From: Synechococcus sp. RS9916
Lineage (GTDB): Bacteria > Cyanobacteriota > Cyanobacteriia > PCC-6307 > Cyanobiaceae
Assembly (NCBI RefSeq): GCF_000153825.1
Contig: NZ_DS022299.1
Coordinates: forward strand, 1,452,869-1,516,868
Length of the DNA stretch: 64,000 bases
Reading direction: 5' to 3'
The notes under the pieces are model-generated. The model was not told the DNA's origin and did no database searches. It worked only from the letters and a program-made list of their open reading frames with translations. Made by a program: the position numbers and the translations under genes. Positions 6,599-20,215 of the stretch are shown here, in pieces; the first letter of the stretch is position 1; each line of letters begins with the position of its first letter.

Positions 6599-7738
6599 AT
6601 GGCCCACTCCGTTCTCACGGCACCCATGGCCACCATCGGTGTTCCGAGCGAAATCAAGGTGGATGAGCAACGGGTCGCGCTCACCCCAGATGCGGTGCGC
6701 GAGCTGGTCACCCAGGGACTGGAAGTGCGGGTGCAGAGCGAAGCCGGAGCCGGGGCCGGCATCAGTGACCAAGCTTTCGCAGCGGCAGGCGCGCGGGTGG
6801 TGACCCGGGAAGAGGCCTGGGCCGCCCATCTCGTGGTGAAAGTCAAAGAGCCTCAAGAGGAGGAATTCGGCTTCCTACGCGACGACATGGTGCTGTTTAC
6901 CTACTTGCATCTCGCGGCGTACCCGAAGGTGGGTGAGGCCCTGCTGAATGCGGGCACCACCGGCGTCGCCTACGAGACGGTGCAGCTCGAAAACGGCAGC
7001 CTGCCCCTGCTGGCTCCCATGAGCGAAATCGCCGGACGCCTGGCAGCCCAAGTGGGAGCCCACTTGCTCGAGCAACCCCATGGCGGCCGTGGAGTCTTGA
7101 TGGGCGGCTGCACCGGTGTACAGCCTGCTCGAGTGGTGGTATTAGGTGCCGGCACCGTGGGATGGAATGCGGCCCGCGTGGCAGCAGCGATGGATGCAGA
7201 AGTGATGTTGCTGGATCGATCCCCAGAAAAGCTACGCAGCCTGGAAGCAGCAAGGCGAGGCCGATTGATGAGTGTGGTGAGTAGCCGTGGACTGCTGGAA
7301 CGTCTCGTACCCAGCGCCGACCTGCTCATTGGCGCCGTGCTCACTCCGGGAGGACGGGCCCCAACCCTTGTGGATGAAGACCTGGTCAAACAGATGAAGC
7401 CCGGTTCAGTGATCGTGGATGTGGCGATTGACCAGGGGGGGTGCGTGGCCAGCAGCAAAGAAACCACCCACACCGACCCCACCGTCAACATCCATGGCGT
7501 GCAGCACTACGCCGTCGGCAACATGCCAGGGGCTGTGCCCTTCACATCCACCGAAGCATTGGTGAGCGTCACCTTGCCCTACATCCTTGGCATCGCCGGC
7601 AGGGGACTGGAAGAAGCTGTCACCGAGCGGCCGGAACTTCTCTCCGGTCTCAACACAGTGCAGGGGGCGGTCTGCCATCCCGGAGTGGCCAAGGCACTCG
7701 GACTGCCGCCGCGACACCCAATGGCCTGCCTGCGCTGA
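6599..7738 (+). CDS. ald: Alanine dehydrogenase
   Basis: NAD-dependent oxidoreductase interconverting L-alanine and pyruvate plus ammonia. The N-terminus IGVPSEIKVDEQRVALTP is the family signature. The Rossmann motif is VVVLGAGTVGWNAARVA near residue 185, and the C-terminal active-site region is YAVGNMPGAVPFTSTEAL. The 379-residue form from ATG 6599 is used here; a second ATG at 6626 would give a length closer to bacterial relatives. It lies 28 bases after nadE. Downstream, base composition changes abruptly at the lanthipeptide gene. Confidence 0.93.
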   Translation: MAHSVLTAPMATIGVPSEIKVDEQRVALTPDAVRELVTQGLEVRVQSEAGAGAGISDQAFAAAGARVVTREEAWAAHLVVKVKEPQEEEFGFLRDDMVLFTYLHLAAYPKVGEALLNAGTTGVAYETVQLENGSLPLLAPMSEIAGRLAAQVGAHLLEQPHGGRGVLMGGCTGVQPARVVVLGAGTVGWNAARVAAAMDAEVMLLDRSPEKLRSLEAARRGRLMSVVSSRGLLERLVPSADLLIGAVLTPGGRAPTLVDEDLVKQMKPGSVIVDVAIDQGGCVASSKETTHTDPTVNIHGVQHYAVGNMPGAVPFTSTEALVSVTLPYILGIAGRGLEEAVTERPELLSGLNTVQGAVCHPGVAKALGLPPRHPMACLR

Positions 7739-7807: not shown

Positions 7808-10800
7808 ATGAGAGAGAACTGGAAGCAGCAATGGCTCGATATCGTTGCACCAGACGAACCACATAAACTCTCAAGACGCCTTGACTGGGATGAGCTAACG
7901 GAAGAAGAATTCCGTGAACATCTTTCAACATCTCCGACCAAGGCCAATCGCTTCGAGGGGCATTGGCAGAACTGCCTGAACGAATGCCGGCTAGCCATTC
8001 AGAAGGCATGGGAGCAACCCCTTCTACCCATTTCTCCTGACAACCAGCAACGGCCCTTTGAAGACCTGTGGCGACCAATCTGCAACGAGGCCAGGGAAAT
8101 ACTAAAGAAAAGATTAAGCAGGCTTGATGGAGTCGGGGAAGGCATTTTTGAGCAATTGACAAACAGCCTGCTCAACCGACTCTGCTCGATTGGCGAACAG
8201 GTTCTGTGGGAGAAATTCAACAGCGAACGCTCGCCAGGCGTCATGCTTCTTGCCCATCTAGGGAGCAATGGCGATGGCTCGGGCCCACCGGTACGCGAAG
8301 GCTACGAGCAGTTCATTCGCAATCATCGCCAGGATGGCCTGACACAACTGCTTGGGGAATTTCCGGAACTCGGCCGACTGATTGGCACGATCGTGCTGCT
8401 ATGGCTGGAAGGAAGCCAGGAAATGCTGGAACGGATCGACCAAGACCGGCAGACCCTGGAAACCCTTTTCGGCATCCCCAAAAACGCTCCTCTACAAACA
8501 ATCCACCAGGGCCTCAGCGATCCCCACCGAGGGGGTCGAGCAGTGGCCATCCTCGGTTTTGCAGGACCTGGGGAAGAACAATACAAACTTGTCTACAAAC
8601 CCAAAGACATGGCAGTCGATGCTGCCTATCAGGACTTACTAAAAGACATCAATCGAAGCAGCTCAGACAAGCCCCTTAAGATACTCAAGATCCACAACGG
8701 AGAAGGCTATGGATACATGGAATATGTCAGCCACAAACCAGCACGCGACGACAAAGAATTAGGTTTCTTTTACAAAAATGCTGGACGCCTAACGGCCGTA
8801 CTACACCTCTTAGGCTGCACAGATTGCCACCACGAGAACCTGATCGCATGCGGAGATCAACTCCTACTCATCGACACAGAAACTCTCCTCGAAGCAGAGT
8901 TACCCAACCATATCAACAATGACACCTCAGAGGCGCCGGAGCTATCAGCGCTCCAGAAGAGATGTCAACGCTCAATCCTGAGGTCGGGACTCATGCCTCA
9001 ATGGATGTTTCTAGGGTCCGAAAAAATTGCAATTGACATCAGCGCTCTTGGCATCAGCCCACCCAAACAGGAGACGCAGAAAACCTCGGGATGGCTTGGA
9101 CTGAATAGCGATGGGATGATGCCGGGAGTCATCGAAAGGAATGCAGACCTACCAACGAGCCTTCCAATTGGCATTGGCTCACCCAACCCGTTCAGCCTCC
9201 ATTTAGACACATTCTGCGAAGGCTTCAGGGAACAAAATCAAACACTGATCGAACAGAAGGATCAGTGGCTCAAGGAGGGTACATTTCTAAATCGATTCAA
9301 AGGGCTGAGGCGAAGAATTGTCTTGAGGGCCACCCGAGTTTATTTTGCAATTCAACGACAGCAACTGGAACCGGCGGCGTTACGATCACCGCTCATTCAA
9401 GCGATCAAGCTCGAACAGTTAAGCAGAAGCTTTCTACTCGCCGAACAGAAACCTCTGCACTGGCCAGTTTTCGCAGCAGAACTGGAGCAAATGCAGCAGC
9501 TTGACATCCCCTTCTTCACTCACCAAATCGATAGCGACGCACTCGACCTCAATCAGGCACAGACCCAGCTTCCGGGATACATCGAAACAAGCGGACTAAG
9601 CGCCGCCAAAGAGCGCTTAGAACAGCTGGACACAAGCGAAGTCGAATTCCAGATCAAACTGATTCGCGGTACTTGCAATGCCCAAAAAATTCGTCGTGGA
9701 GCAAGCGTGGAGACCAGCGTCCACAGCGCGCAAGAGAACCAATACACAACCCAAACCAAAAGCGCTGCTGACCACCAAGTAGCAGCAACAAACGTGATGA
9801 ACTGCCTCGCTGATTTAGCCATCGAGGACAACAGTGGACAGATGGAGTGGCTCGGGATGGATCTAGGTGCTGATGGTGAGTCATTCTCATTCGGCCCAGT
9901 CGGATTTTCCCTTTATGGGGGATCGAGTGGTGTCGCCATTCTTGATCACACACTCCAGCGCCTCAACGGCACAAATTCACAACTCTCGGCCATACAAAGC
10001 GGTGTACTCCAATCGATACAGCAACTCGCTGAAAAGGCTTCAGAAGACCAACGACTGCGATGGTGGCGTGATCAATCGCTCGGACTAAGTGGATGCGGGG
10101 GGATGCTACTGACTTTGCAATGTCTGGGGCAAACTTCATGGGCACAAAGCCTTCTGAAATCAGGACGTCAGCGATTTCTGGAGGCAGACCGGCAACTTGA
10201 CTTGATCGGTGGTTGTACAGGACTGATTGGTCCCTTGCTGCACCTCAAGAGCCCTGAGGCCCTAGACCTTGCAATCCACGCAGGCAAACACTTACTTGAG
10301 CAACAACAAGAGGATGGATCATGGCCAGGCAGAGCAAAAAACACTCCAGGCTTACTGGGGTTCTCCCACGGGACAGCAGGGCATGCAGCGGCTCTCGCCA
10401 AGCTTCATCAAGCAACGCATGACAACCGCTTCCTCGAAGGAGCAAAAGCCGCGTTGCACCATGAGCGGGCACACTTTGATTCGAAGGAAGAAAACTGGCC
10501 AGACTTCAGAGACATCACGCAATCTGGGAGCTTCATGACCAGTTGGTGCCATGGAGCACCAGGCATCGGAATCGCTCGCGCCTGCCTTTGGCAAACAGAA
10601 CTCTGGGATGAGCAATGCCGGGATGAAATCCACGCAGCAATACGAACAACGTCAAAATCAATCGGTCAACTGCGATCTGACCACCTCTGCTGCGGCAAAG
10701 CCGGGCTGGCAATCATCCTGGAAATGTTGTGCGATGGCCCGTGGGGAGTAGAAGCTCATGTTGCCGATCTCGCCCGTGAGCGAACGATTCAAATTCACAC

Positions 10801-10984
10801 TTCACTCATGAATCGCACTTCAAGCAAGATGCCCGACCTGATTTGCTTTGCAGCGAAAGAAACCAGTTTGGTCCTTCCAGGTTTTTTCACAGGCCTAAGC
10901 GGCATTGGGATGGCGTTACTAAGAGACGATCAATCGAAACAGACAACACGGCGTTTGTTAACTGCAGGTCTCTGGACGGAATAA
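7808..10984 (+). CDS. lanM: Class II lanthipeptide synthetase, ProcM-like (LanM)
   Basis: Bifunctional enzyme of about 1058 residues that phosphorylates and eliminates Ser/Thr in a precursor peptide, then forms (methyl)lanthionine rings. The dehydratase (DUF4135) domain covers roughly residues 80-600, with the kinase-like KLVYKPKDMAVD, CTDCHHENLIA and LLIDTETLLEAEL motifs. The LanC-like cyclase spans about 680-1055. Its zinc ligands are Cys914 (SWCHGAPG) and the pair Cys961-Cys962 (LCCGKAG), so a third Cys replaces the usual His. That three-Cys site is the hallmark of ProcM-type synthetases, known for tolerance of many substrates. ATG 7808 is preferred over GTG 7805 because AAGG at 7797 is better spaced. 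It converges on the export operon; no precursor gene adjoins it. Confidence 0.93.
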   Translation: MRENWKQQWLDIVAPDEPHKLSRRLDWDELTEEEFREHLSTSPTKANRFEGHWQNCLNECRLAIQKAWEQPLLPISPDNQQRPFEDLWRPICNEAREILKKRLSRLDGVGEGIFEQLTNSLLNRLCSIGEQVLWEKFNSERSPGVMLLAHLGSNGDGSGPPVREGYEQFIRNHRQDGLTQLLGEFPELGRLIGTIVLLWLEGSQEMLERIDQDRQTLETLFGIPKNAPLQTIHQGLSDPHRGGRAVAILGFAGPGEEQYKLVYKPKDMAVDAAYQDLLKDINRSSSDKPLKILKIHNGEGYGYMEYVSHKPARDDKELGFFYKNAGRLTAVLHLLGCTDCHHENLIACGDQLLLIDTETLLEAELPNHINNDTSEAPELSALQKRCQRSILRSGLMPQWMFLGSEKIAIDISALGISPPKQETQKTSGWLGLNSDGMMPGVIERNADLPTSLPIGIGSPNPFSLHLDTFCEGFREQNQTLIEQKDQWLKEGTFLNRFKGLRRRIVLRATRVYFAIQRQQLEPAALRSPLIQAIKLEQLSRSFLLAEQKPLHWPVFAAELEQMQQLDIPFFTHQIDSDALDLNQAQTQLPGYIETSGLSAAKERLEQLDTSEVEFQIKLIRGTCNAQKIRRGASVETSVHSAQENQYTTQTKSAADHQVAATNVMNCLADLAIEDNSGQMEWLGMDLGADGESFSFGPVGFSLYGGSSGVAILDHTLQRLNGTNSQLSAIQSGVLQSIQQLAEKASEDQRLRWWRDQSLGLSGCGGMLLTLQCLGQTSWAQSLLKSGRQRFLEADRQLDLIGGCTGLIGPLLHLKSPEALDLAIHAGKHLLEQQQEDGSWPGRAKNTPGLLGFSHGTAGHAAALAKLHQATHDNRFLEGAKAALHHERAHFDSKEENWPDFRDITQSGSFMTSWCHGAPGIGIARACLWQTELWDEQCRDEIHAAIRTTSKSIGQLRSDHLCCGKAGLAIILEMLCDGPWGVEAHVADLARERTIQIHTSLMNRTSSKMPDLICFAAKETSLVLPGFFTGLSGIGMALLRDDQSKQTTRRLLTAGLWTE

Positions 10985-10993
10985 AATTCTCAA

Positions 10994-13165
10994 TCAATGA
11001 CTGTCGAGCATTTTCTTCAAATAGCCATGACCCTTAAGATCCTCCCATGCACCAAACTCAGCGGGAAGGCCCTTTTCCAAAACAATAATTTGATCGGCAC
11101 GTTGAATCGTCGAAAGGCGGTGGGCGATACTGATACGAGTAATACCGAGAGAGTCAACGACTTCAGTGATGTGCTGTTGAGAGCGAGGGTCTAAAGCACT
11201 GGTCGCCTCATCCAGGATCAACACCTTTGGATTCGAAATCAAAGCACGGGCGATGGCAATTCTCTGAACCTGACCACCAGAAACATTTCCACCCGAATCA
11301 CTAAGCAGAGTTTCAAGCTGCATTGGCATAGAGCGAATTTCATCGGCAATCGCAGCACGCTCAAGCGCATCCCATATCTGATCCTCGGTGTACTGAATGC
11401 CACCGGAGATGACATCAAAAATTGAACCGGCATTCAACCTTGCGGTTTGCATTACAACACCCAACTGGCGTCGATACGCACGGATTGCAAGCTGAGTCAG
11501 TGGAATGCCATCAACAAGCACCTCACCACCTTGTGGCTGAGTAAAACCGAGCAGCATCCGTACCAGAGTTGTTTTCCCACAGCCACTCGCTCCAGTGATT
11601 GCCGTATGCTTCCCAGAGGGAATATCAAAGGAGAGGTTGCTAAAAAGGGGATCCGAACTTCCTGGGAACTCATAAGAAATATTCTGGATGCGAAATTCTC
11701 CACGAAGGGAATGGCGCAAAGCGTCAGCCTGATAGCCCTTTTCAACATCGGCATACATCACAGGTGCAGCACGTCTCCAAAGCACAGCAGCTCGCCCCGC
11801 AGTGTTGGCGAACATGTTGACAGCATTTGTCACAGCACCATTGAAGCTTGAGAATGCAGCATTAAAAGAAATAAACGCGACAACAGTTTGATCAAGGTTG
11901 ACACTTTCAGAAGAAGAAAGAATCTTGTAAGCAACAACTGCAAAAAGGAAGAGAGAAGCTATAGGAGAGACAACTTCGCCATACTGAGAAATCGCGTCGC
12001 CGTAGACATTGGCACGCAACTGTAATAGCGCATATCGGTTCACCTCACGCAACCAACGCAACAACAGAAAAGGCTCAGCACCAGCTGTACGTATCTGTGG
12101 CATGCCCATCACAGACTGCAAAGAAAAATTCGTAATCTCCGCTCCACTCTCAAGCAATGGCATCTGAAGACGAATAGAACGCCATGTAATCACTAACAAG
12201 CAGACAACCGCAATCGACGTGAATGCCAACGCCCAAAACGCAAGCTGACGATCATAAACAAACATCAGAACAAAATAGCTTAATGAGAATAACGTCGAAA
12301 GCAGTGTTGTCAAAACTCCACTACCCAGAAGCTGGCGGAGTTGACTAATTGAATTCACGCGCGATGCAAGGTCTCCTGTCGTATAGCGACTGATAAAACT
12401 CATTGGCAGACGCATCAAGCGATCCCAGACTGCTGACTGCAACCTGAGGTCTGCCACACTCTCAAGCCGGAGCATCATTAGATTCTGCAAAAAGGATGCA
12501 GCAATGGAACCCAAAACGATCAAAAAGACGACAACAACACCTTCCACAAGAAGACGCTGATCATTTTGAGGGAGGATCTTACTAACAAGAGTATTCGTCA
12601 GGATTGGAATCGAAAGATTGAACAACATCACCACAGCAGAGGTGATGATCAGTGCAAGAATAGGGAAAAGGTCTGCAGCGAAAGCAAATTTCAAGACCGA
12701 CAAAGGCCCTGGAACCAATGGCGGCAAGGATGGGTAAATCTCGTAAGCATCGTCCACCAGAGACGGACCACGATCCGCTCGAACATGAACTTGCTTATGA
12801 GCACTGTACAACCAGTTTTCACCAGAATGACGGTATAGAGCCCAGGGCTGTTGATGATCAGCATCAAAGACAATCATCAAAGGGAACTCATTATCATTAG
12901 TAGGGTCTAAATCCCAATAATGGGTCTCAAAATCACGAGGTGTTGTTATCTGCCTATGATGAATATCATTATAATCAAGCAATTGAACAATATCGGCACC
13001 AGGAAGTGAATCAAGGGTCATTGTCCTGCATCCCAATTGCGCCATACAAAAGCCAAGCAAGCGTAATTCTGGGTATTGATCATCCTCAACAGGAGGAGTG
13101 AACAAAAGCTCCTCTTCTAGATCACGTGCAGAGCGAAGAGCTTGCTGAGAAAAATTCAAACTCAT
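10994..13165 (-). CDS. Lanthipeptide/bacteriocin ABC transporter, ATPase-permease without active peptidase (NHLM ABC2 type)
   Basis: A 723-residue ABC exporter half. The N-terminal ~160 residues are soluble and show no catalytic Cys/His arrangement of a C39 protease. Six hydrophobic helices follow between about 165 and 445. The nucleotide-binding domain carries Walker A GASGCGKTT, signature NVSGGQVQR and Walker B VLILDEATSALD. Architecture and operon place it with the second transporter of NHLM-type peptide systems. It lies two bases after the C39 transporter gene and probably forms a heterodimer or parallel unit with it. The stop is ten bases from the convergent lanM stop. Confidence 0.88.
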   Translation of the reverse strand: MSLNFSQQALRSARDLEEELLFTPPVEDDQYPELRLLGFCMAQLGCRTMTLDSLPGADIVQLLDYNDIHHRQITTPRDFETHYWDLDPTNDNEFPLMIVFDADHQQPWALYRHSGENWLYSAHKQVHVRADRGPSLVDDAYEIYPSLPPLVPGPLSVLKFAFAADLFPILALIITSAVVMLFNLSIPILTNTLVSKILPQNDQRLLVEGVVVVFLIVLGSIAASFLQNLMMLRLESVADLRLQSAVWDRLMRLPMSFISRYTTGDLASRVNSISQLRQLLGSGVLTTLLSTLFSLSYFVLMFVYDRQLAFWALAFTSIAVVCLLVITWRSIRLQMPLLESGAEITNFSLQSVMGMPQIRTAGAEPFLLLRWLREVNRYALLQLRANVYGDAISQYGEVVSPIASLFLFAVVAYKILSSSESVNLDQTVVAFISFNAAFSSFNGAVTNAVNMFANTAGRAAVLWRRAAPVMYADVEKGYQADALRHSLRGEFRIQNISYEFPGSSDPLFSNLSFDIPSGKHTAITGASGCGKTTLVRMLLGFTQPQGGEVLVDGIPLTQLAIRAYRRQLGVVMQTARLNAGSIFDVISGGIQYTEDQIWDALERAAIADEIRSMPMQLETLLSDSGGNVSGGQVQRIAIARALISNPKVLILDEATSALDPRSQQHITEVVDSLGITRISIAHRLSTIQRADQIIVLEKGLPAEFGAWEDLKGHGYLKKMLDSH

Positions 13166-13167
13166 AA

Positions 13168-15387
13168 CTACACCTCTAAACTCTGACTTTGACCGTTCTC
13201 GTTTTGAACAAGCTGATGAAATAATCCACCTTGCGAAAGCAGTTCTGATGGGGAGCCCCTTTCAACAACAAGGCCGTTTTGCAGAACAAGGACTTGATCA
13301 CTGCGCAAGGCTGCATCGAGTCGATGTGCAACATTGATCACTGTTATTTTTCTCCTCTTAAGAGCATTCAATACCTTAGATTGAGTTTCATTGTCAAGAG
13401 CACTCGTCGCCTCATCAAATAAAAGAATGCTCGGATCACGCAACAGAGCCCTGCATATTTCAAGTCGTTGACGCTCGCCTCCACTCAGATCACTTCCATT
13501 ATCTCGAAGATGGCGATGAAAGGATTCAGGGTGATTATTTATGGTTTGGAGAATCTGAGCATCCTCTGCAGCATGTTCCAACTGTTCCAAGCTGTAACCA
13601 GGGCGCCACAACGAAAGGTTGTCATGAACACTGGCATTAAAAACAAAGACCTGCTGTGGGACATAAGCCAGACTGTTCCTCATCACTGCATCACCATGGG
13701 CTGACCACGGCTGATCATCAAACAGCAAGTCGCCGGACGAGGGTTGATATAAACCCGCCAAAATACGTATCAACGTTGTTTTACCTGAGCCACTACCACC
13801 AACAATTGCCAACTGGGAACCAGCAGGCACAGAGAGATTCAGGTTGCTGATAAAGGGCGGAGAAACAGGGTCAAAGGCAAAACTGAGATCCCTCAACTCA
13901 ATGGATCCTTTCAGACGAAGAGAAGCTGAATCCTGACTAACCGAACCAGGGCTTGAGGAGGACAGATTAAAACTACGCACCAAGGGATCATCGTCATTCT
14001 TTTTAAGATCATCAAGGCGTCCCATATCTCCGATCAGCCTCTGGATGACAGAGTTCAATTGCGGCAATAATGAGATTGGGGCGGTCAACTGGCCCTGGAT
14101 GAACTGAAAGGCGACTAGAGTTCCTAAAGAGATTTTTCCTTGAATAATAAGAAAACCACCAACTGCAATAATCAAAGCATTAAGCATAAAGGTACTACCA
14201 CTCGCCGTAATCGTTGAAAAGGCCATCTGGGCACCCAGAAGCTGATTCTGTATAACAACATTTCCAAAACTTCCTTGCCATTGACTCAGGAAGTCGAATT
14301 CAAGACCTGAAGCCTTTAATGTTTCAATGTTATTAATGCCTTGCAGGCCTTTTCCTTGTGCCTTGCCTTGCTCAATTGCCAATTTGCGGTTGGCATCGTA
14401 ACGCCTCTCAGTCAACCACCAATTCAGGAAGAGATTCCCACCCATCACGAAGATAACGAGAATCGCAAGCCAAGAAGATATGATCAGCGCAAAAACAAGA
14501 ACAATCAACCCCGTCCAAAGGCTAATCGCAAAAGTAATAATTTGAGCAACAAGAACCTGGGTTGCTTGCATCCCAAGCAGCATTCTACTAGCAATTTCAC
14601 CGTGAAAGCGAGTTTGATAAAATCCATAGGTAACACTAAAAAGCTTCCTAAATAAGTTTGCGGTCATCTTTTTGGACAACAACAATGTCATCCGCCGCAA
14701 AATGACGTACTGAACGGCCAACAACGACAGCCAGCCCAAAACGGAAGCAGTTAGAAGCCAAATGATTGGAATGCCAAAATACAATCGTTGGTTCTGGAGA
14801 AAACTATCAATAAATGTGGACGTCAGGCCAGCAACCAACAAGGTCAGAATTGCTTGACCAGTTGCAATGAAGGTCAACTGAAGCAATGCATTGCGATAGG
14901 GCCAAAGTGTCGAAAACAACCCCCATAGTGGGGATCGCTGAGAACCACCTGTTTGAAAGTCAGGTCCCGGCTCAAACTCAAGAACGACTCCGGTAAAACT
15001 ATCTAAGAATTCGTCCATCAGGACGCGCACACGGCCCTGAGCTGGATCGCTTAGAAAGGCATGGTCTCCCTCAAAACCTTCGACAACAAGAAAATGGTTG
15101 AAACCCCAAAATATGACGCACGGGAATCGCCCCTCATTGCGCAACTGTTCGCCAGAGCAACGGTACGCCCTGGTGTTCAATCCATATCCACGCGCCGCAA
15201 CGAGCAGTTGCTTGGCATTGGAGCCATCACGATTCACACCACAAGCTTGGCGAAGATCACTGAGCTCAACAATTCGGCCAAAAAAATCCAAAATCGTCGC
15301 CAGTGAAGCAGCGCCACATTCAGCCGCTTCATACTGCAATCGAGTACGTACCTTAATCCGAGTTTTTGAGAGTTGCTTCGTCATCAA
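13168..15387 (-). CDS. lanT: Peptidase C39-containing ABC transporter (LanT / NHLM ABC1 type)
   Basis: A 739-residue exporter that cleaves leader peptides at a double-glycine-type site and pumps out the core peptide. The N-terminal C39 domain has Gln18 (RLQYEAAECG), catalytic Cys24, His98 (FWGFNHFLVV) and Asp114 (LSDPAQG), all intact. Membrane helices span about 165-430. The ATPase has Walker A GGSGSGKTT, signature DLSGGERQR and Walker B ILLFDEATSALD. It sits between the HlyD-like adaptor and the second ABC gene, forming with the TolC-like protein a complete type I secretion path across both membranes. The catalytic set implies a substrate with a GG, GA or GS leader end. Confidence 0.93.
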   Translation of the reverse strand: MMTKQLSKTRIKVRTRLQYEAAECGAASLATILDFFGRIVELSDLRQACGVNRDGSNAKQLLVAARGYGLNTRAYRCSGEQLRNEGRFPCVIFWGFNHFLVVEGFEGDHAFLSDPAQGRVRVLMDEFLDSFTGVVLEFEPGPDFQTGGSQRSPLWGLFSTLWPYRNALLQLTFIATGQAILTLLVAGLTSTFIDSFLQNQRLYFGIPIIWLLTASVLGWLSLLAVQYVILRRMTLLLSKKMTANLFRKLFSVTYGFYQTRFHGEIASRMLLGMQATQVLVAQIITFAISLWTGLIVLVFALIISSWLAILVIFVMGGNLFLNWWLTERRYDANRKLAIEQGKAQGKGLQGINNIETLKASGLEFDFLSQWQGSFGNVVIQNQLLGAQMAFSTITASGSTFMLNALIIAVGGFLIIQGKISLGTLVAFQFIQGQLTAPISLLPQLNSVIQRLIGDMGRLDDLKKNDDDPLVRSFNLSSSSPGSVSQDSASLRLKGSIELRDLSFAFDPVSPPFISNLNLSVPAGSQLAIVGGSGSGKTTLIRILAGLYQPSSGDLLFDDQPWSAHGDAVMRNSLAYVPQQVFVFNASVHDNLSLWRPGYSLEQLEHAAEDAQILQTINNHPESFHRHLRDNGSDLSGGERQRLEICRALLRDPSILLFDEATSALDNETQSKVLNALKRRKITVINVAHRLDAALRSDQVLVLQNGLVVERGSPSELLSQGGLFHQLVQNENGQSQSLEV

Positions 15388-15397
15388 GCCACTGCTC

Positions 15398-16795
15398 TCA
15401 TCGCTTCTGAGATTCAGAAAGTGAGCCAGCCGTCCCTTTATCCGGTGGGGTTAAGCCAAAGAAATTCTTGATCGCCGGAAGAACGAGAGCAATTGGAGCA
15501 ACGCGACGGGTAGTAATTTCAACCATGACTTGATCACCGGGAGTAGGGGGGAAAGGCAAATCGGAATTCGAACTCCAGACATAACCACCGCTATTCATTG
15601 GAGTAGTTTGATTAGAACGCTCTAAAGCAACAACTGCAAGGGTGGGAGAAGGTTCGCGATTGACAATTGTTTGTGCCATCGCCTTCACACCAATTCGAGC
15701 AGTGACTTGGTCAACACCACTCGGCAATTTACCCATGGAGATCACAGTGCCCTTAATCCCTCCCACTTCAGAACGCTTGTACCCAGAAGGGGTGGCTAGA
15801 GCAGACATACCAGGGAAAACCTGAGCCATTTCCCTGCTTGATAAAAAAACTGGAATCATGGTTGGTTCATCAAGACGATTCTCACTCAATTCCATTAGTA
15901 CTTCACCTCTGGTTACGCTTTCCCCATCATTCGGAACAATCGTCGACAGATACACGTCACGAGGTGCAAAAATCAGCTGATTATTAACGAGTTGCGCCAA
16001 TTGTGTCCTGACTTTCTGATAAGCCTGATCCTTCCGAGACGAAATCCGTATTAATTCATTATCATTGCCATGCATCTGCGAACTAAGTTGATCGATGGTT
16101 GCTTGCTCTTGCAATATTTGCGATCGGCTCACAAAGCCTTTAAGCTCAAGAGGTTTCATGCTCTCTAAATAGGCAGATCGACTGACATACTCATTCTTCA
16201 ACATTTCTTGTTTAGCCACAATATTATTCATCTCCTCAACTGATTTGCGAAGTGTGCGGTTCAATTGATCAATCGCGCTGCTTAACTTCTCCAGCTCTGC
16301 TGATGATTGCACCCAAAGCAACAGCCGACCCTTTGAGACTTTTAAACCATTAAAAGCTTCTTTTAGACTGTCCGAAAAACGAGAGGAAGCGGTTTTCTCT
16401 TCATTCGCTGTGGCCGAGTGCAAGCCTGGCTGACTGGCTTCGTAAATATCAACTGCCAGTTCAGCCATCTCGCGATCATTAAATTGCATCGGCGTCGCAA
16501 GAAAAAGCCGTGCTTTTTCTTGCCATTCTTGTTGAGACCGATTGAACATATAAACAGCCGAACCATCAGTACCACTCAAACTGGAATTAATGGTACTCAC
16601 AGGCAACAACACACCTGTTCCTTGCACACTCACGGGGATTCGAGCCAAAGTGGCCCAAAACCCACCAGCTAAAGCAATCAAGCCACCCAGCACCAATGTG
16701 GCACGAAGGGGAGGCGTGAGCAACGTAACTGGTCCATTACGGTCGCCAACCCGACGCCGTTTTTGAAGAGCGCGTTGCGTGAAAAGTTGAGTCAT
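15398..16795 (-). CDS. HlyD-family membrane fusion protein of peptide secretion system (NHLM type)
   Basis: Periplasmic adaptor of 465 residues linking the inner-membrane ABC transporter to the TolC-like channel. One transmembrane helix lies near residues 30-48 (LRATLVLGGLIALAGGFWATLA). A long helical hairpin follows at about 120-250, rich in heptad-like Leu/Glu/Lys (AELEKLSSAIDQLNRTL region). The beta-barrel and membrane-proximal part continues to the C-terminus, with the PGDQVMVEI motif typical of this family. Its ATG overlaps the end of the tolC-like gene by four bases, so the two are translationally coupled. Confidence 0.88.
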   Translation of the reverse strand: MTQLFTQRALQKRRRVGDRNGPVTLLTPPLRATLVLGGLIALAGGFWATLARIPVSVQGTGVLLPVSTINSSLSGTDGSAVYMFNRSQQEWQEKARLFLATPMQFNDREMAELAVDIYEASQPGLHSATANEEKTASSRFSDSLKEAFNGLKVSKGRLLLWVQSSAELEKLSSAIDQLNRTLRKSVEEMNNIVAKQEMLKNEYVSRSAYLESMKPLELKGFVSRSQILQEQATIDQLSSQMHGNDNELIRISSRKDQAYQKVRTQLAQLVNNQLIFAPRDVYLSTIVPNDGESVTRGEVLMELSENRLDEPTMIPVFLSSREMAQVFPGMSALATPSGYKRSEVGGIKGTVISMGKLPSGVDQVTARIGVKAMAQTIVNREPSPTLAVVALERSNQTTPMNSGGYVWSSNSDLPFPPTPGDQVMVEITTRRVAPIALVLPAIKNFFGLTPPDKGTAGSLSESQKR

Positions 16796-18384
16796 GGCGA
16801 GGTGGGATTGCGCAGACGTTGAACACGCTCTTCAACGTCTTGCTTAGCTGTTACTGGCCATGTTGCTGAGTAACGATACAATTCTGCAATAGAAGTATTA
16901 TATTTCAAGATCGAGTCTGCCATCTGCTGTGAGGACTGGGACAGCTGATTAATCGCCTGCACCACTGACGTAATATCTCCGACACCGACCTGAAAACGTG
17001 CTCGCGCTGCAGCTTGCGCCAATTCAGCACTTTGATAACTCCGACGGGCTGCTTTGATTGCAATCGCTGCGGTTTGCATTTGCCCATAAGCTGTCCTCAC
17101 TTCGCTCACGACCTGATCTTCCGTCTTTGCTTTCAAGGCAAGTAAATTTCGGCTTTGTGCAAAATTCTGCTGCGCCTGGGCAGCATTGATACCTCCATCA
17201 AATTGCCAATTAAAGCCAATACCAACATTCGCTGTCCATTGGCGATTCGTGTTGTAAGTACGTCCTGGGTCGATCCCCAAGTAGGTTTGAGGATAGCCAT
17301 TGTTTCCCTGGACCCCCCCCCGTCCAACAAGAGAAAACACTGGCAAATAAGCTTTCATGTTAGCGATTCCTGTCCATCGATATGATTCTGCCTGCGCGGA
17401 ATACGCCAAAATCTCCTCTCGATATTGGAGTGAACGCTGCAAAGTATCACCAAGAGTCCTATCCCATAACCCCTGAGGCGAAGCCGGCTCCGAAGGCACC
17501 GCCAGCGCATCTTCCGGAAGCGCCATGAACTGGGCAAGCTGAGCAGTTGACGCAATATAATTTTGCATATATTGCACTAATTGCGTCAACTGAATATACA
17601 AACTAGAACGCTGCTGTTCAACCTCAGCAACGGTTACCATGCCAATCGCTTTTCGAGCCTCAAGCATGTCAAGCTGCTGCTTGTTAATATCAAAAATCTG
17701 CTTGAAACTATCGATCAACTGTTTGGTGTTTTGAATCTGAAAATAGGACTGCTGAAGACTCAAAATCAGCTGCCTCGCTGCATTATCAAACAATAACCTT
17801 TGCTGCTCTAGGGAACTTTGAGCTGAATTAATGCCTGGCTGCCTAGTGGGATCAATAAATGTCCATTTAAGCTGGGCCGTCACTCCCACTTGAAATTGCT
17901 GCTGTTGCTGAGCTTGCTTGGATTGATACTTCTGAGGCACATTGCTTTTAATTTTCTTCCATTTAGATCCCTGATAAGGCCTAACTTGTGCGTAATTATC
18001 TTGAACATACGTCGTCCAGTTGTAACCTACAAATGGATTGGAGCCTTGAATCTGGAAAGTAGGATTCCACTTCCGCTGAGCCTGAATCAAAGCCCACTCT
18101 TGGCCTTGTAATTGGGCGAACTGCTCAGCAAGAGAGGGATTATTCGCCACACCTTGAGCGACCGCTTCCTGCAGGCTCACCTTCACGGCACGGGCCTCAA
18201 TTGTGGCCTGCAAGTTTTCAAGCTCACCAAGAAGTTCTTGTGGACGAACTTGGCCTGAAACAGCAGCTGGCTGATGGGACTGGTGTGCAGAGGGAAAGGG
18301 TTCAGCCCTTAAAGCAACCAACCAACCAGACGCCCCGGTAAGACAAACTGTCGCGATCGAAACCAGCTTCAGCGGATCCAGCAC
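16792..18384 (-). CDS. TolC-like outer-membrane efflux protein
   Basis: A 530-residue outer-membrane channel, first gene of the export operon. An N-terminal signal-like segment (LKLVSIATVCLTGASGWLVA, residues 5-24) precedes the mature part. Two OEP repeats, each with long amphipathic helices, are visible (EAVAQGVANNPSLAEQ at about 75 and the QAAARARFQVGVGDITSV region near 465). The protein is rich in Gln and Asn. A run of nine G on the coding strand (17313-17321) falls in this gene with the frame intact. The 117 bases upstream (18385-18501) must carry the operon promoter unless it reads through from ychJ. Confidence 0.87.
   Translation of the reverse strand: MLDPLKLVSIATVCLTGASGWLVALRAEPFPSAHQSHQPAAVSGQVRPQELLGELENLQATIEARAVKVSLQEAVAQGVANNPSLAEQFAQLQGQEWALIQAQRKWNPTFQIQGSNPFVGYNWTTYVQDNYAQVRPYQGSKWKKIKSNVPQKYQSKQAQQQQQFQVGVTAQLKWTFIDPTRQPGINSAQSSLEQQRLLFDNAARQLILSLQQSYFQIQNTKQLIDSFKQIFDINKQQLDMLEARKAIGMVTVAEVEQQRSSLYIQLTQLVQYMQNYIASTAQLAQFMALPEDALAVPSEPASPQGLWDRTLGDTLQRSLQYREEILAYSAQAESYRWTGIANMKAYLPVFSLVGRGGVQGNNGYPQTYLGIDPGRTYNTNRQWTANVGIGFNWQFDGGINAAQAQQNFAQSRNLLALKAKTEDQVVSEVRTAYGQMQTAAIAIKAARRSYQSAELAQAAARARFQVGVGDITSVVQAINQLSQSSQQMADSILKYNTSIAELYRYSATWPVTAKQDVEERVQRLRNPTSP
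17313..17321 (-). repeat. Homopolymer G9 tract inside tolC-like gene
   Basis: Nine consecutive C on the plus strand, i.e. nine G on the coding strand, encoding an Arg-Gly-Gly stretch. The frame is intact here. Runs of this length can slip during replication. Confidence 0.9.
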
Positions 18385-18501: not shown

Positions 18502-18954
18502 TCATTGGGTAAGTGCGAGTGCACGCAGATAGACCCACTCACCATTGAGATCTCTCGAACGCCTCTCAAACAACGAGACCTCCTGCAGAGAATGACGATG
18601 CCCACCCTCAGAGAATGAGGCTTTAAACGTCACAGTTCCCTCGACATCTTGGATTCCTCCAGCCTCCACGGCCTCAATCTCAAGACCTAGCCAACGGGTC
18701 TTCCGGCAGCTGTTGCGGAGTTCTCTGCGACGCCGCTCCAATGGAGCCTCTGGATCCAAGTGGGTGGCAATGAGATAGTCGACATCCCCCAAAACGAAAG
18801 CGGTGTAGCGAGAGCGCATCAACTGTTCAGCCGTTTCAGCTCTTGTTGTGGCCCAATGCAATGGGCCACAACAAGAGCCGTAGACAAGACTGCTACCGCA
18901 GGGACACGGAGACTTGGGGGAGCACAGCGACGTTCCAAAACCAAGCGCCATCAC
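18502..18954 (-). CDS. YchJ-like protein with SEC-C zinc motif (UPF0225)
   Basis: A 150-residue protein of the YchJ/UPF0225 family. The N-terminal SEC-C motif CPCGSSLVYGSCCG (residues ~17-30) is a zinc-binding element. The following region (AEQLMRSRYTAFVLGDVDYLIATH) is the family's NTF2-like core with its usual Arg-Ser-Arg-Tyr segment. No catalytic role is established for the family. The start ATG overlaps the DUF3326 stop as ATGA, so it is the last gene of the chain running from the ferredoxin at 20547. A perfect 17-bp inverted repeat lies over the Cys-rich codons. Confidence 0.85.
   Translation of the reverse strand: MMALGFGTSLCSPKSPCPCGSSLVYGSCCGPLHWATTRAETAEQLMRSRYTAFVLGDVDYLIATHLDPEAPLERRRRELRNSCRKTRWLGLEIEAVEAGGIQDVEGTVTFKASFSEGGHRHSLQEVSLFERRSRDLNGEWVYLRALALTQ
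18839..18878. repeat. Perfect 17-bp inverted repeat inside the YchJ-like gene
   Basis: Arms 18839-18855 and 18862-18878 are exact reverse complements (GCTCTTGTTGTGGCCCA and its complement) with a 6-base loop. The hairpin lies within codons for SCCGPLHWATTRA. There is no T-run, so it is not a standard terminator. Confidence 0.9.
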
Positions 18955-20030
18955 GGAAGCACCTGAAGTGCAGGGAATGGTCGCTGTACCGCCGAAGCAG
19001 ACAATCCCTCACGCAAAGCAACGATGAGACCCGCAGCCTCGGCGTAGGAGGACGCCGCCAACAGAGGGCACGTCCGATCCAGATCAAGCGCCTGAGCCGT
19101 GACTTGAAGCAATGAGGGGTTGGCCACGGTGATCACAGGCACCGATCGCTCCATGCAAGCCAGCAGCGCCTCACTGCCAAGTGCTCCATCGGGCACAACC
19201 ACAGCACCGAGCTGATCGGGATGTAGGAGGTGGCTTGACTGCAACGCATCAGCACGCAAAAGATCGGGTGCCCTGCTGAGACCCACCAACACGCAGGACA
19301 AAAAGGTGTACCCCAGCTCTTCACCGGCAGCACGAGGGTCCAGTTGGGGATCCAAGGGGAGCGGTGCCAACGCGGGAGCATGGGCACAAGGCAGCTGCAG
19401 GTGCCTCACCAGAAGGTGACTGATCACTGCTTCCGCGCCAGCGAGAGCGTCCACCCCACTGCCATGGCGATAAGCCTCGAGGGCTTCACTGTCAGGGTCT
19501 TCGGGGAAGCGTGCCACCACAGCAATGGCCGTCGCCCCGGCCGCCTTGAGACGCTCCCCAGCTCGGAGCAGCGCATCCGGCCGCTCCAATGTCCCCCAGC
19601 TAATTCCACTATCCCCCAGCTCCAGATGCACCCCCAATGGAGCATCGGTCGTTACTACCGGGCCAATCTCGAGGCCAAGGCTGGCGCGGCAACCATCCGC
19701 CACCTGGAGATGACGTTGACGCAACTCAGGCTCGATGCCCGCATCCAGCAACAAGCCAATGCGTTGGCGACGCACCGGCCGCAGCATCCAATCACCGACC
19801 GCAAAACGATCGAGGGCATAACCCTCTACATAATGAATCCGGGGATCACTCCAGTAGAGCGAAGCCCCGTTCATCACGTTGGGATGGGTGATCAGGCATC
19901 CGCTGGCTGCCGCCAACAATCGAGCGCTGGGTAAGGCATCTCCAGCAAAACCACCCACATCACAACCAATACCCGTGGGAACCAGGAACAAAGTGAGACA
20001 AGGCTCGGCACCCGAGGGAAAAGCACTCAT
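18951..20030 (-). CDS. DUF3326 domain protein
   Basis: A 359-residue conserved protein with the DUF3326 opening LFLVPTGIGCDVGGFAGDALPSARLLAAA and an internal THPNVMNGASLYW segment. These glycine-rich turns suggest a ligand-binding alpha/beta protein, but no reaction is known to me. I chose ATG 20030 because it overlaps the upstream stop as ATGA and removes a low-complexity extension reaching 20105. It is followed by the ychJ-like gene, also with an ATGA overlap. The family is widespread in cyanobacteria and plants, so a core housekeeping role is likely though unassigned. Confidence 0.82.
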   Translation of the reverse strand: MSAFPSGAEPCLTLFLVPTGIGCDVGGFAGDALPSARLLAAASGCLITHPNVMNGASLYWSDPRIHYVEGYALDRFAVGDWMLRPVRRQRIGLLLDAGIEPELRQRHLQVADGCRASLGLEIGPVVTTDAPLGVHLELGDSGISWGTLERPDALLRAGERLKAAGATAIAVVARFPEDPDSEALEAYRHGSGVDALAGAEAVISHLLVRHLQLPCAHAPALAPLPLDPQLDPRAAGEELGYTFLSCVLVGLSRAPDLLRADALQSSHLLHPDQLGAVVVPDGALGSEALLACMERSVPVITVANPSLLQVTAQALDLDRTCPLLAASSYAEAAGLIVALREGLSASAVQRPFPALQVLP

Positions 20031-20215
20031 CGAATCAGCACAGCCTCCACCTGAAGCAGCGTGGACGCGCCTGCAGGATCCCGATCCACCGCGGTGATCG
20101 CCCAACGCAACGGCTCACCCTCGCGACGAAGTTGCTCCAACAACCACGCCCGCAACTGGTGCCGAGGTAGATCCACGGGACAGGACAGACTCAATCGCCG
20201 CGAAGCGAGCTTCAC
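20027..20215 (-). CDS. Small conserved-looking protein, 62 residues
   Basis: Not recognised. The frame starts at GTG 20215, whose last two bases join the ferredoxin stop (GTGA), and ends in ATGA with the DUF3326 start, so it is tightly locked between two real genes. The sequence (KLASRRLSLSCPVDLPRHQL, then a charged LLEQLRREGEPLRWAITAVD stretch) is compact and without membrane segments. The overlap pattern is the main evidence for it being coding. Confidence 0.65.
   Translation of the reverse strand: MKLASRRLSLSCPVDLPRHQLRAWLLEQLRREGEPLRWAITAVDRDPAGASTLLQVEAVLIR

What the first reader, a model, noticed from the sequence alone, without database searches (positions are those of the whole stretch)
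7808..18384. ProcM-type lanthipeptide synthetase and full export line without a precursor gene
The sequence shows a LanM with a three-Cys zinc site (Cys914, Cys961, Cys962), an intact C39 peptidase/ABC transporter, a second ABC transporter, an HlyD adaptor and a TolC channel. No open frame in the block or elsewhere in the window has a Nif11- or nitrile-hydratase-like leader ending in a double glycine. In known ProcM systems many precursors are scattered over the genome, so one synthetase serves a dispersed peptide library. This strain probably has the same trait, and its peptides may be new.
Basis: partly seen in the sequence, partly recalled or inferred. Interest (0 to 1): 0.85.

Follow-up and report, generated by a model that had tools for sequence, protein, structure and literature searches.

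The report
Prochlorosin synthetase with far-off precursors
A marine cyanobacterium carries one ring-forming enzyme and its export line at one place and about nineteen peptide genes for it scattered elsewhere on the chromosome, which is the known prochlorosin system and is not a surprise.

Summary
Observation confirmed. Window 7808-10984 (+) is a full-length class II lanthipeptide synthetase with the three-Cys zinc site Cys914/961/962. It faces a minus-strand run TolC-HlyD-C39/ABC-second ABC (18384-10994). No Nif11 precursor was found in the window. Leaders average 66% identity, cores 24% (18 of 19); 17 of 19 cores hold Cys plus Ser/Thr. Of 10 genomes of the genus, the 4 with LanM have at least 28 Nif11-leader matches each, the 6 without 9-14. 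This is a prochlorosin/synechococsin system. A review gives 19 cores for Synechococcus RS9916, probably this strain (inferred), so it is most likely in print. Modest additions: the cassette sits between alanine dehydrogenase and a YchJ-like gene. Relatives have that site without it, hold the exporter there without LanM (G156), or carry the cassette elsewhere; two keep reciprocal relics of a broken LanM-exporter pair. The machinery thus seems to move and fall apart independently of its substrates. Interest low to moderate.

The parts
7808..10984 (+). LanM, ProcM/SyncM-like class II lanthipeptide synthetase, 1058 aa
   Evidence: TIGR03897 867 bits; only match in the genome; 57% to Synechococcus UW105 LanM
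10547..10549 (+). codon of zinc ligand Cys914 (WCHGAPG)
   Evidence: aligned with the Cys of LicM2 WCHGAPG
10688..10693 (+). codons of Cys961 and Cys962 (LCCG), Cys962 in place of the usual His
   Evidence: LicM2 has CHG at the aligned place
10994..13165 (-). second ABC transporter (permease + ATPase, no C39 match), 723 aa
   Evidence: best NCBIfam TIGR03797, 551 of 709 bits; Walker A, signature, Walker B present
13168..15384 (-). LanT, C39 peptidase/ABC transporter (AMS/PCAT type), 738 aa from ATG
   Evidence: Pfam C39 + ABC; catalytic Cys23/His97/Asp113 align to the LahT-type protease 6mpz
15398..16795 (-). HlyD-like membrane-fusion adaptor, 465 aa
   Evidence: TIGR03794 E 3.5e-26, below cut-off; no Pfam match
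16792..18384 (-). TolC-like outer-membrane channel, 530 aa; its stop overlaps the HlyD start by 4 bases
   Evidence: Pfam OEP E 5.6e-53
6599..7738 (+). left flank: alanine dehydrogenase, one side of the site
   Evidence: TIGR00518; present in 31 of 31 genomes of the genus
18502..18954 (-). right flank: YchJ-like gene
   Evidence: Pfam YchJ_M-like; next to alanine dehydrogenase in relatives without the cassette
18951..20105 (-). right flank: DUF3326 gene
   Evidence: Pfam; present in 31 of 31 genomes of the genus

Best explanation
A prochlorosin/synechococsin system. One LanM dehydrates Ser/Thr and closes Cys thioether rings on many Nif11-leader precursors made from genes scattered over the chromosome. 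The conserved leader is the shared handle for LanM and for LanT; LanT cuts after the double glycine, and the ABC-HlyD-TolC line carries the cores out of the cell. Shown here: the enzymes with their active-site residues, the 19 precursors, conserved leaders against unrelated cores, and the coupling of LanM to Nif11-leader number in the genus. Inferred: catalysis on all 19, cleavage and export by this LanT rather than by the second such transporter of the genome, and any role of the peptides, whose function the literature calls unknown (abstract of PMC10783134).
For: Sole LanM found, CCG zinc motif, as in 14 of 14 relatives' LanM copies inspected (of 20 LanM-type loci in hand, L069, L074, L081, L082, L084 and L085 were not inspected). 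19 intact Nif11-GG precursors. Leader identity 66% against core identity 24% over 153 pairs of 18 of the 19 precursors. Cores hold 42 Cys in 407 residues, leaders 0 Cys in 1226; 17 of 19 cores have Cys and Ser/Thr. Genus: 4 of 10 genomes LanM-positive with >=28 Nif11-leader matches each (scoring limit), 6 LanM-negative with 9-14. Window-type LanT (>=75% in the C39 domain) found in 7 of 201 genomes, 6 of them LanM-positive. LahT150 cleaves ProcA leaders in vitro (PMC6363468, passages), and 6mpz is the best match of the window's C39 domain among solved structures by sequence.
Against: Two of the 19 cores have no Cys and could at most be dehydrated. A second C39/ABC line exists at 1.833-1.840 Mb, so export by the window's LanT is not proven. 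ABC2, LanT and HlyD fall below NCBIfam equivalog cut-offs. At family level the coupling is loose: G072 has LanM but only 6 weak Nif11-leader matches (best E 3.3e-11), G107 has LanM and 7; G075, G134, G156 and G165, for example, have strong leaders (best E 9e-24 to 4e-22) but no LanM match.
Confidence: 0.93

Rival explanations
1. The LanM acts, but its products leave through the other Nif11/NHLP-type exporter (1.833-1.840 Mb: bacteriocin-type transport-associated protein, ABC2, HlyD, C39/ABC); the window's exporter serves other peptides.
For: The second C39/ABC scores 1025 bits in TIGR03796, above the cut-off of 853, the window's only 684. In G029, a LanM genome with precursors, no window-type LanT (>=75%) was found (best 50%) and only a scrap of ABC2 is left beside LanM.
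Against: Window-type LanT is in 7 of 201 genomes, 6 LanM-positive, and lies beside LanM in 5 of those 6. C39 domains only about 50% like the window's, as the second one is, also occur in genomes without LanM; I did not compare those with the second line itself.
Confidence: 0.2
2. The LanM locus is an abandoned remnant and the scattered Nif11 genes are not its substrates.
For: No Nif11 match within 93 kb of LanM; in related genomes the LanM-exporter pair is found broken.
Against: All five genes are open, LanM, LanT and ABC2 with their motifs; in the genus Nif11-leader number follows LanM; cores are Cys-rich.
Confidence: 0.04
3. A dedicated precursor in the window was missed (unusual leader).
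For: The nitrile-hydratase-leader search had a silent control.
Against: Nif11, TIGR03798 and own-precursor models and tblastn find none in the window; only 69 and 117 bp of intergenic DNA lie at the two ends of the cassette.
Confidence: 0.03

Closest known systems
Prochlorosin system (ProcM/ProcA, Prochlorococcus MIT9313)
   Same: One LanM with the CCG zinc motif, many dispersed Nif11-GG precursors, conserved leader and variable core. G071, which I take to be MIT9313 from its genome length of 2,410,873 (length of MIT9313 recalled), has a LanM 56% identical.
   Different: In G071 precursors lie 2.1 kb from LanM and the exporter about 0.77 Mb away, with a scrap of LanM (residues 997-1057) beside it; here LanM and exporter are together and precursors are far.
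Synechococsin system (SyncM/SyncA) and the nine ProcM-like clusters of PMC10783134
   Same: Marine Synechococcus LanM with TolC, HlyD, ABC transporters and C39 protease nearby, CCG motif, precursors spread over the genome (section 4, parts 1-2 of 3).
   Different: Nothing in kind; the strain here may be the one printed there as RS9116 (clade IX), by inference.
AMS/PCAT transporter LahT
   Same: C39 triad aligned residue for residue with 6mpz, E 3.7e-44; LahT150 cleaves ProcA leaders (PMC6363468, passages).
   Different: Here followed by a second ABC protein and accompanied by a Gram-negative HlyD/TolC line.

Membership tests
ProcM-like LanM (prochlorosin synthetase group) | DUF4135 dehydratase + LanC-like cyclase in one protein | tested here: met
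ProcM-like LanM (prochlorosin synthetase group) | three-Cys zinc site, CCG motif instead of CHG | tested here: met
   the motif as a group marker: PMC10783134
ProcM-like LanM (prochlorosin synthetase group) | one synthetase, several precursors encoded apart from it | tested here: met
   1 LanM, 19 precursors in seven places
ProcM-like LanM (prochlorosin synthetase group) | modifies many unrelated cores | not testable with these tools
   needs co-expression and mass spectrometry
Prochlorosin/SyncA precursors | Nif11 leader ending in the -D/E-E-L-E-x3-G-G- type motif | tested here: met
   19 of 19 aligned share E-x3-G-G, Met1 and seven further invariant columns; the full published motif with E-L before it is not in every one
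Prochlorosin/SyncA precursors | variable core with Cys and Ser/Thr | tested here: met
   17 of 19; two cores lack Cys
AMS/PCAT (LanT) exporters | intact C39 Cys-His-Asp triad with ABC permease and ATPase | tested here: met
NHLM/NHLP exporter equivalogs TIGR03796, TIGR03797, TIGR03794 | score over the curated cut-off | tested here: not met
   684 of 853, 551 of 709, 92 of 156 bits; not filed as members
Identity with Synechococcus sp. RS9916 | same genome | tested here: inconclusive
   19 precursors here, 19 reported; genome length about 2.66 Mb is recalled; no named record compared

The most novel reading that the evidence does not exclude
The synthetase and exporter form a module that changes chromosomal place and falls apart independently of its dispersed substrates, using for one of its sites (alanine dehydrogenase/YchJ) a spot where peptide-modification genes recur: LanM cassette here, exporter alone in G156, SagB-type dehydrogenase in eight other genomes. 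Strains such as G156 would then export Nif11 peptides that are no longer lanthionine-bridged.
Probability: 0.35. Interest if true: 0.45.

Novelty: already known. Interest (0 to 1): 0.27.

Why it matters
It confirms by computation that a synthetase locus without any precursor can be read correctly as part of a dispersed prochlorosin system. The site comparison offers testable material on an open point, what prochlorosins do: G156 keeps the exporter and at least one strong Nif11 leader gene, but no LanM was found in it, which lets one ask what the exporter does without ring formation.

Tried and rejected
Nitrile-hydratase leaders: none found, but the control was silent. Precursor remnant in the window: only chance-level tblastn matches, the recurrent one inside a 306-aa frame. 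Remnant of LanM between alanine dehydrogenase and ABC2 in G156: none recognisable in six-frame reading of 280 bp and no tblastn match at 1e-5. A tRNA as insertion site: no tRNA in the window. Promoter/terminator scan: 14 promoter-like sites against 9.4 (sd 2.9) in shuffles, 12 terminator-like against 14.0 (sd 3.3); not used. Repeats around the IS200-like gene: three short direct families and two weak inverted pairs, nothing I could use. Two PNAS papers (2010, 2017) and one ACS paper (2014) were asked for by id and are not held; nothing is taken from them. The TnpAREP preprint was seen only as cited in PMC10783134 (also named in section text); a search for it gave only that paper. Core comparison with other genomes used only the 29 cores that a strict pattern found in the loci in hand, and that pattern missed one of the 19 own cores.

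Full report
Observation. LanM runs 7808-10984 on the plus strand; 9 bases separate its end from the end of the minus-strand run TolC (18384-16792), HlyD (16795-15398), LanT (15384-13168), second ABC (13165-10994). Families: LanM 867 bits in TIGR03897; LanT has C39, membrane and ATPase domains; TolC is a clear OEP protein; HlyD is weak. Cys914, Cys961 and Cys962 check letter for letter; against LicM2 the first two fall on Cys and the third on His. The motifs DCHHEN (from 339) and LLIDTET (from 353) of the dehydratase half are present. The C39 triad Cys23, His97, Asp113 sits on positions 27, 101 and 117 of 6mpz in a gapless alignment (LahT residues Cys27, His101, Asp117 from passages of PMC6363468; that 6mpz is LahT147 is recalled).

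Genome-wide search. The window is part of a single contig of 2,664,873 bases. One LanM was found. Nif11 (PF07862) gives 37 matches, TIGR03798 35, and a model made from the 19 precursors 30 (E up to 0.1); none is in the window. Of the Nif11 matches, 19 are intact small ORFs with a leader ending in GG of the prochlorosin type: four at 62.3-64.4 kb, one at 87.4 kb, one at 776.4 kb, two at 810-811 kb, two at 1085-1086 kb, eight at 1357.6-1362.7 kb and one at 2483.6 kb. A further one at 63.8-64.0 kb has an in-frame TAA. I left out the other 17 matches: ORFs without such an end, one at 586 kb whose leader ends AAG, and a near-identical pair at 1366-1367 kb with a partial Nif11 match. The nearest of the 19 is 97,976 bases from LanM (the precursor that this script missed is farther).

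Are they its substrates? Mean pairwise identity is 66% in leaders and 24% in cores over 153 pairs (18 of 19 precursors; my pattern missed the one at 63.2 kb in that count). In all 19, cores hold 42 Cys in 407 residues and leaders none in 1226; 17 of 19 cores have Cys and Ser/Thr. Among the 10 genomes of the genus in the 201-genome draw, the 4 with LanM each reach the scoring limit of 28 Nif11-leader matches, the 6 without have 9, 12, 10, 9, 14 and 10; a perfect split of random labels has a chance of 1 in 210 (by hand, ignoring relatedness). At family level (13 of 201 genomes with LanM over the cut-off) there are exceptions both ways: G072 has LanM and 6 weak leaders, G107 LanM and 7; G075, G134, G156 and G165, for example, have strong leaders and no LanM match. 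These counts include Nif11 leaders that do not end in GG. The CCG motif is in 14 of 14 relatives' LanM copies inspected, of 20 LanM-type loci in hand.

Export. The genome holds a second C39/ABC line at 1.833-1.840 Mb with HlyD, ABC2 and a bacteriocin-type transport-associated protein. Window-type LanT (>=75% identity in the C39 domain) is in 7 of 201 genomes, 6 of them LanM-positive, and beside LanM in 5 of these 6; this favours, without proof, the window's line as the prochlorosin exporter.

Site history. In the genus (31 genomes; 30 with alanine dehydrogenase and DUF3326 matches on one contig) the gap between these genes is 16-500 bp in 19, 897 bp in one and 2.2-12.2 kb in ten. Five of the 19 short gaps and the 897-bp one were read: G213, G141, G218 and G169 have the YchJ-like gene in the gap, G181 and G193 nothing. 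The ten long gaps are this genome (LanM cassette), G156 (exporter, no LanM; about 220 bp between alanine dehydrogenase and ABC2) and eight with a SagB-type dehydrogenase after alanine dehydrogenase (family scan of two of the eight). In G071 the exporter stands with a scrap of the LanM C-terminus (residues 997-1057) in the position where LanM stands here, and the intact LanM is about 0.77 Mb away; in G029 LanM stands with an 81-residue ABC2 scrap. So the LanM-exporter pair looks like the older arrangement, broken more than once; this is inference from arrangement, no tree was built. In five of the relatives read (G193, G169, G071, G186, G029) a precursor lies within 2.2 kb of LanM; in G141 none lies in the 20 kb read and in G120 none on the 15-kb contig; the loci of G047, G072, G082, G107 and G144 were not read that far. 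Far-off precursors are thus usual for part of the library in this group, but a LanM with none nearby is the less common case.

Literature. PMC10783134 (outline, section 4 parts 1 and 2 of 3, passages) describes ProcM-like enzymes with the CCG motif, the same transport genes nearby and precursors spread over the genome. PMC11433236 (one passage) gives 19 cores for Synechococcus RS9916. PMC8533319 (one passage) names RS9916 with ProcM. PMC11667668 (passages) gives 30 to as many as 40 precursors for MIT9313. PMC4949707 (passages) reports the RS9916 exoproteome; in its main text 'nif11' and 'bacteriocin' occur 0 times and 'lanthipeptide' once, in a reference.

Verdict.

Noticed in passing
G000:C1:2482603-2483388 (L116:2104-2889): The only IS200-like (Y1_Tnp) gene found in the genome (1 match; Pfam) ends 226 bp from the precursor at 2483615-2483869, in line with a reported association of TnpAREP with lanthipeptide genes (cited in PMC10783134).
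   Followed up: partly
G000:C1:1366068-1367101 (L061:9569-10602): Two tandem precursor-like ORFs of 90 aa, one leader residue apart, with a partial Nif11 match and an identical tail GWCSYGGCIFTAFITTGVPLK after GG; not counted among the 19.
   Followed up: partly
G000:C1:63777-63977: A precursor gene with an in-frame TAA after 20 codons, a sign of gene loss in the family.
   Followed up: no
L123 (G156:C3:84000-98000): A relative (draft, 99% complete) with the exporter at the same site and no LanM found, though it keeps a strong Nif11 leader.
   Followed up: partly
L129:5467-5640 and L133:7577-7825: Reciprocal scraps: LanM C-terminus beside the exporter in G071, ABC2 C-terminus beside LanM in G029.
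   Followed up: yes
L141-L148, after alanine dehydrogenase: A SagB-type dehydrogenase follows alanine dehydrogenase in eight genomes of the genus at the site where the LanM cassette sits here; three of them also have a full-length PSII-family gene there.
   Followed up: partly
L067 (Roseovarius lutimaris) 10001-13840: A ProcM-like LanM 53% identical to the window's in an alphaproteobacterium, with a Nif11-leader ORF (TIGR03798 44.8 bits, leader end ELEGCC, no GG) and a tRNA-Leu next to it; transfer between phyla is my inference.
   Followed up: partly
window 7808-18384 against L066: LanM is 57% identical to that of UW105 while LanT and ABC2 are 76-78%: the synthetase seems to change faster than its exporter.
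   Followed up: no
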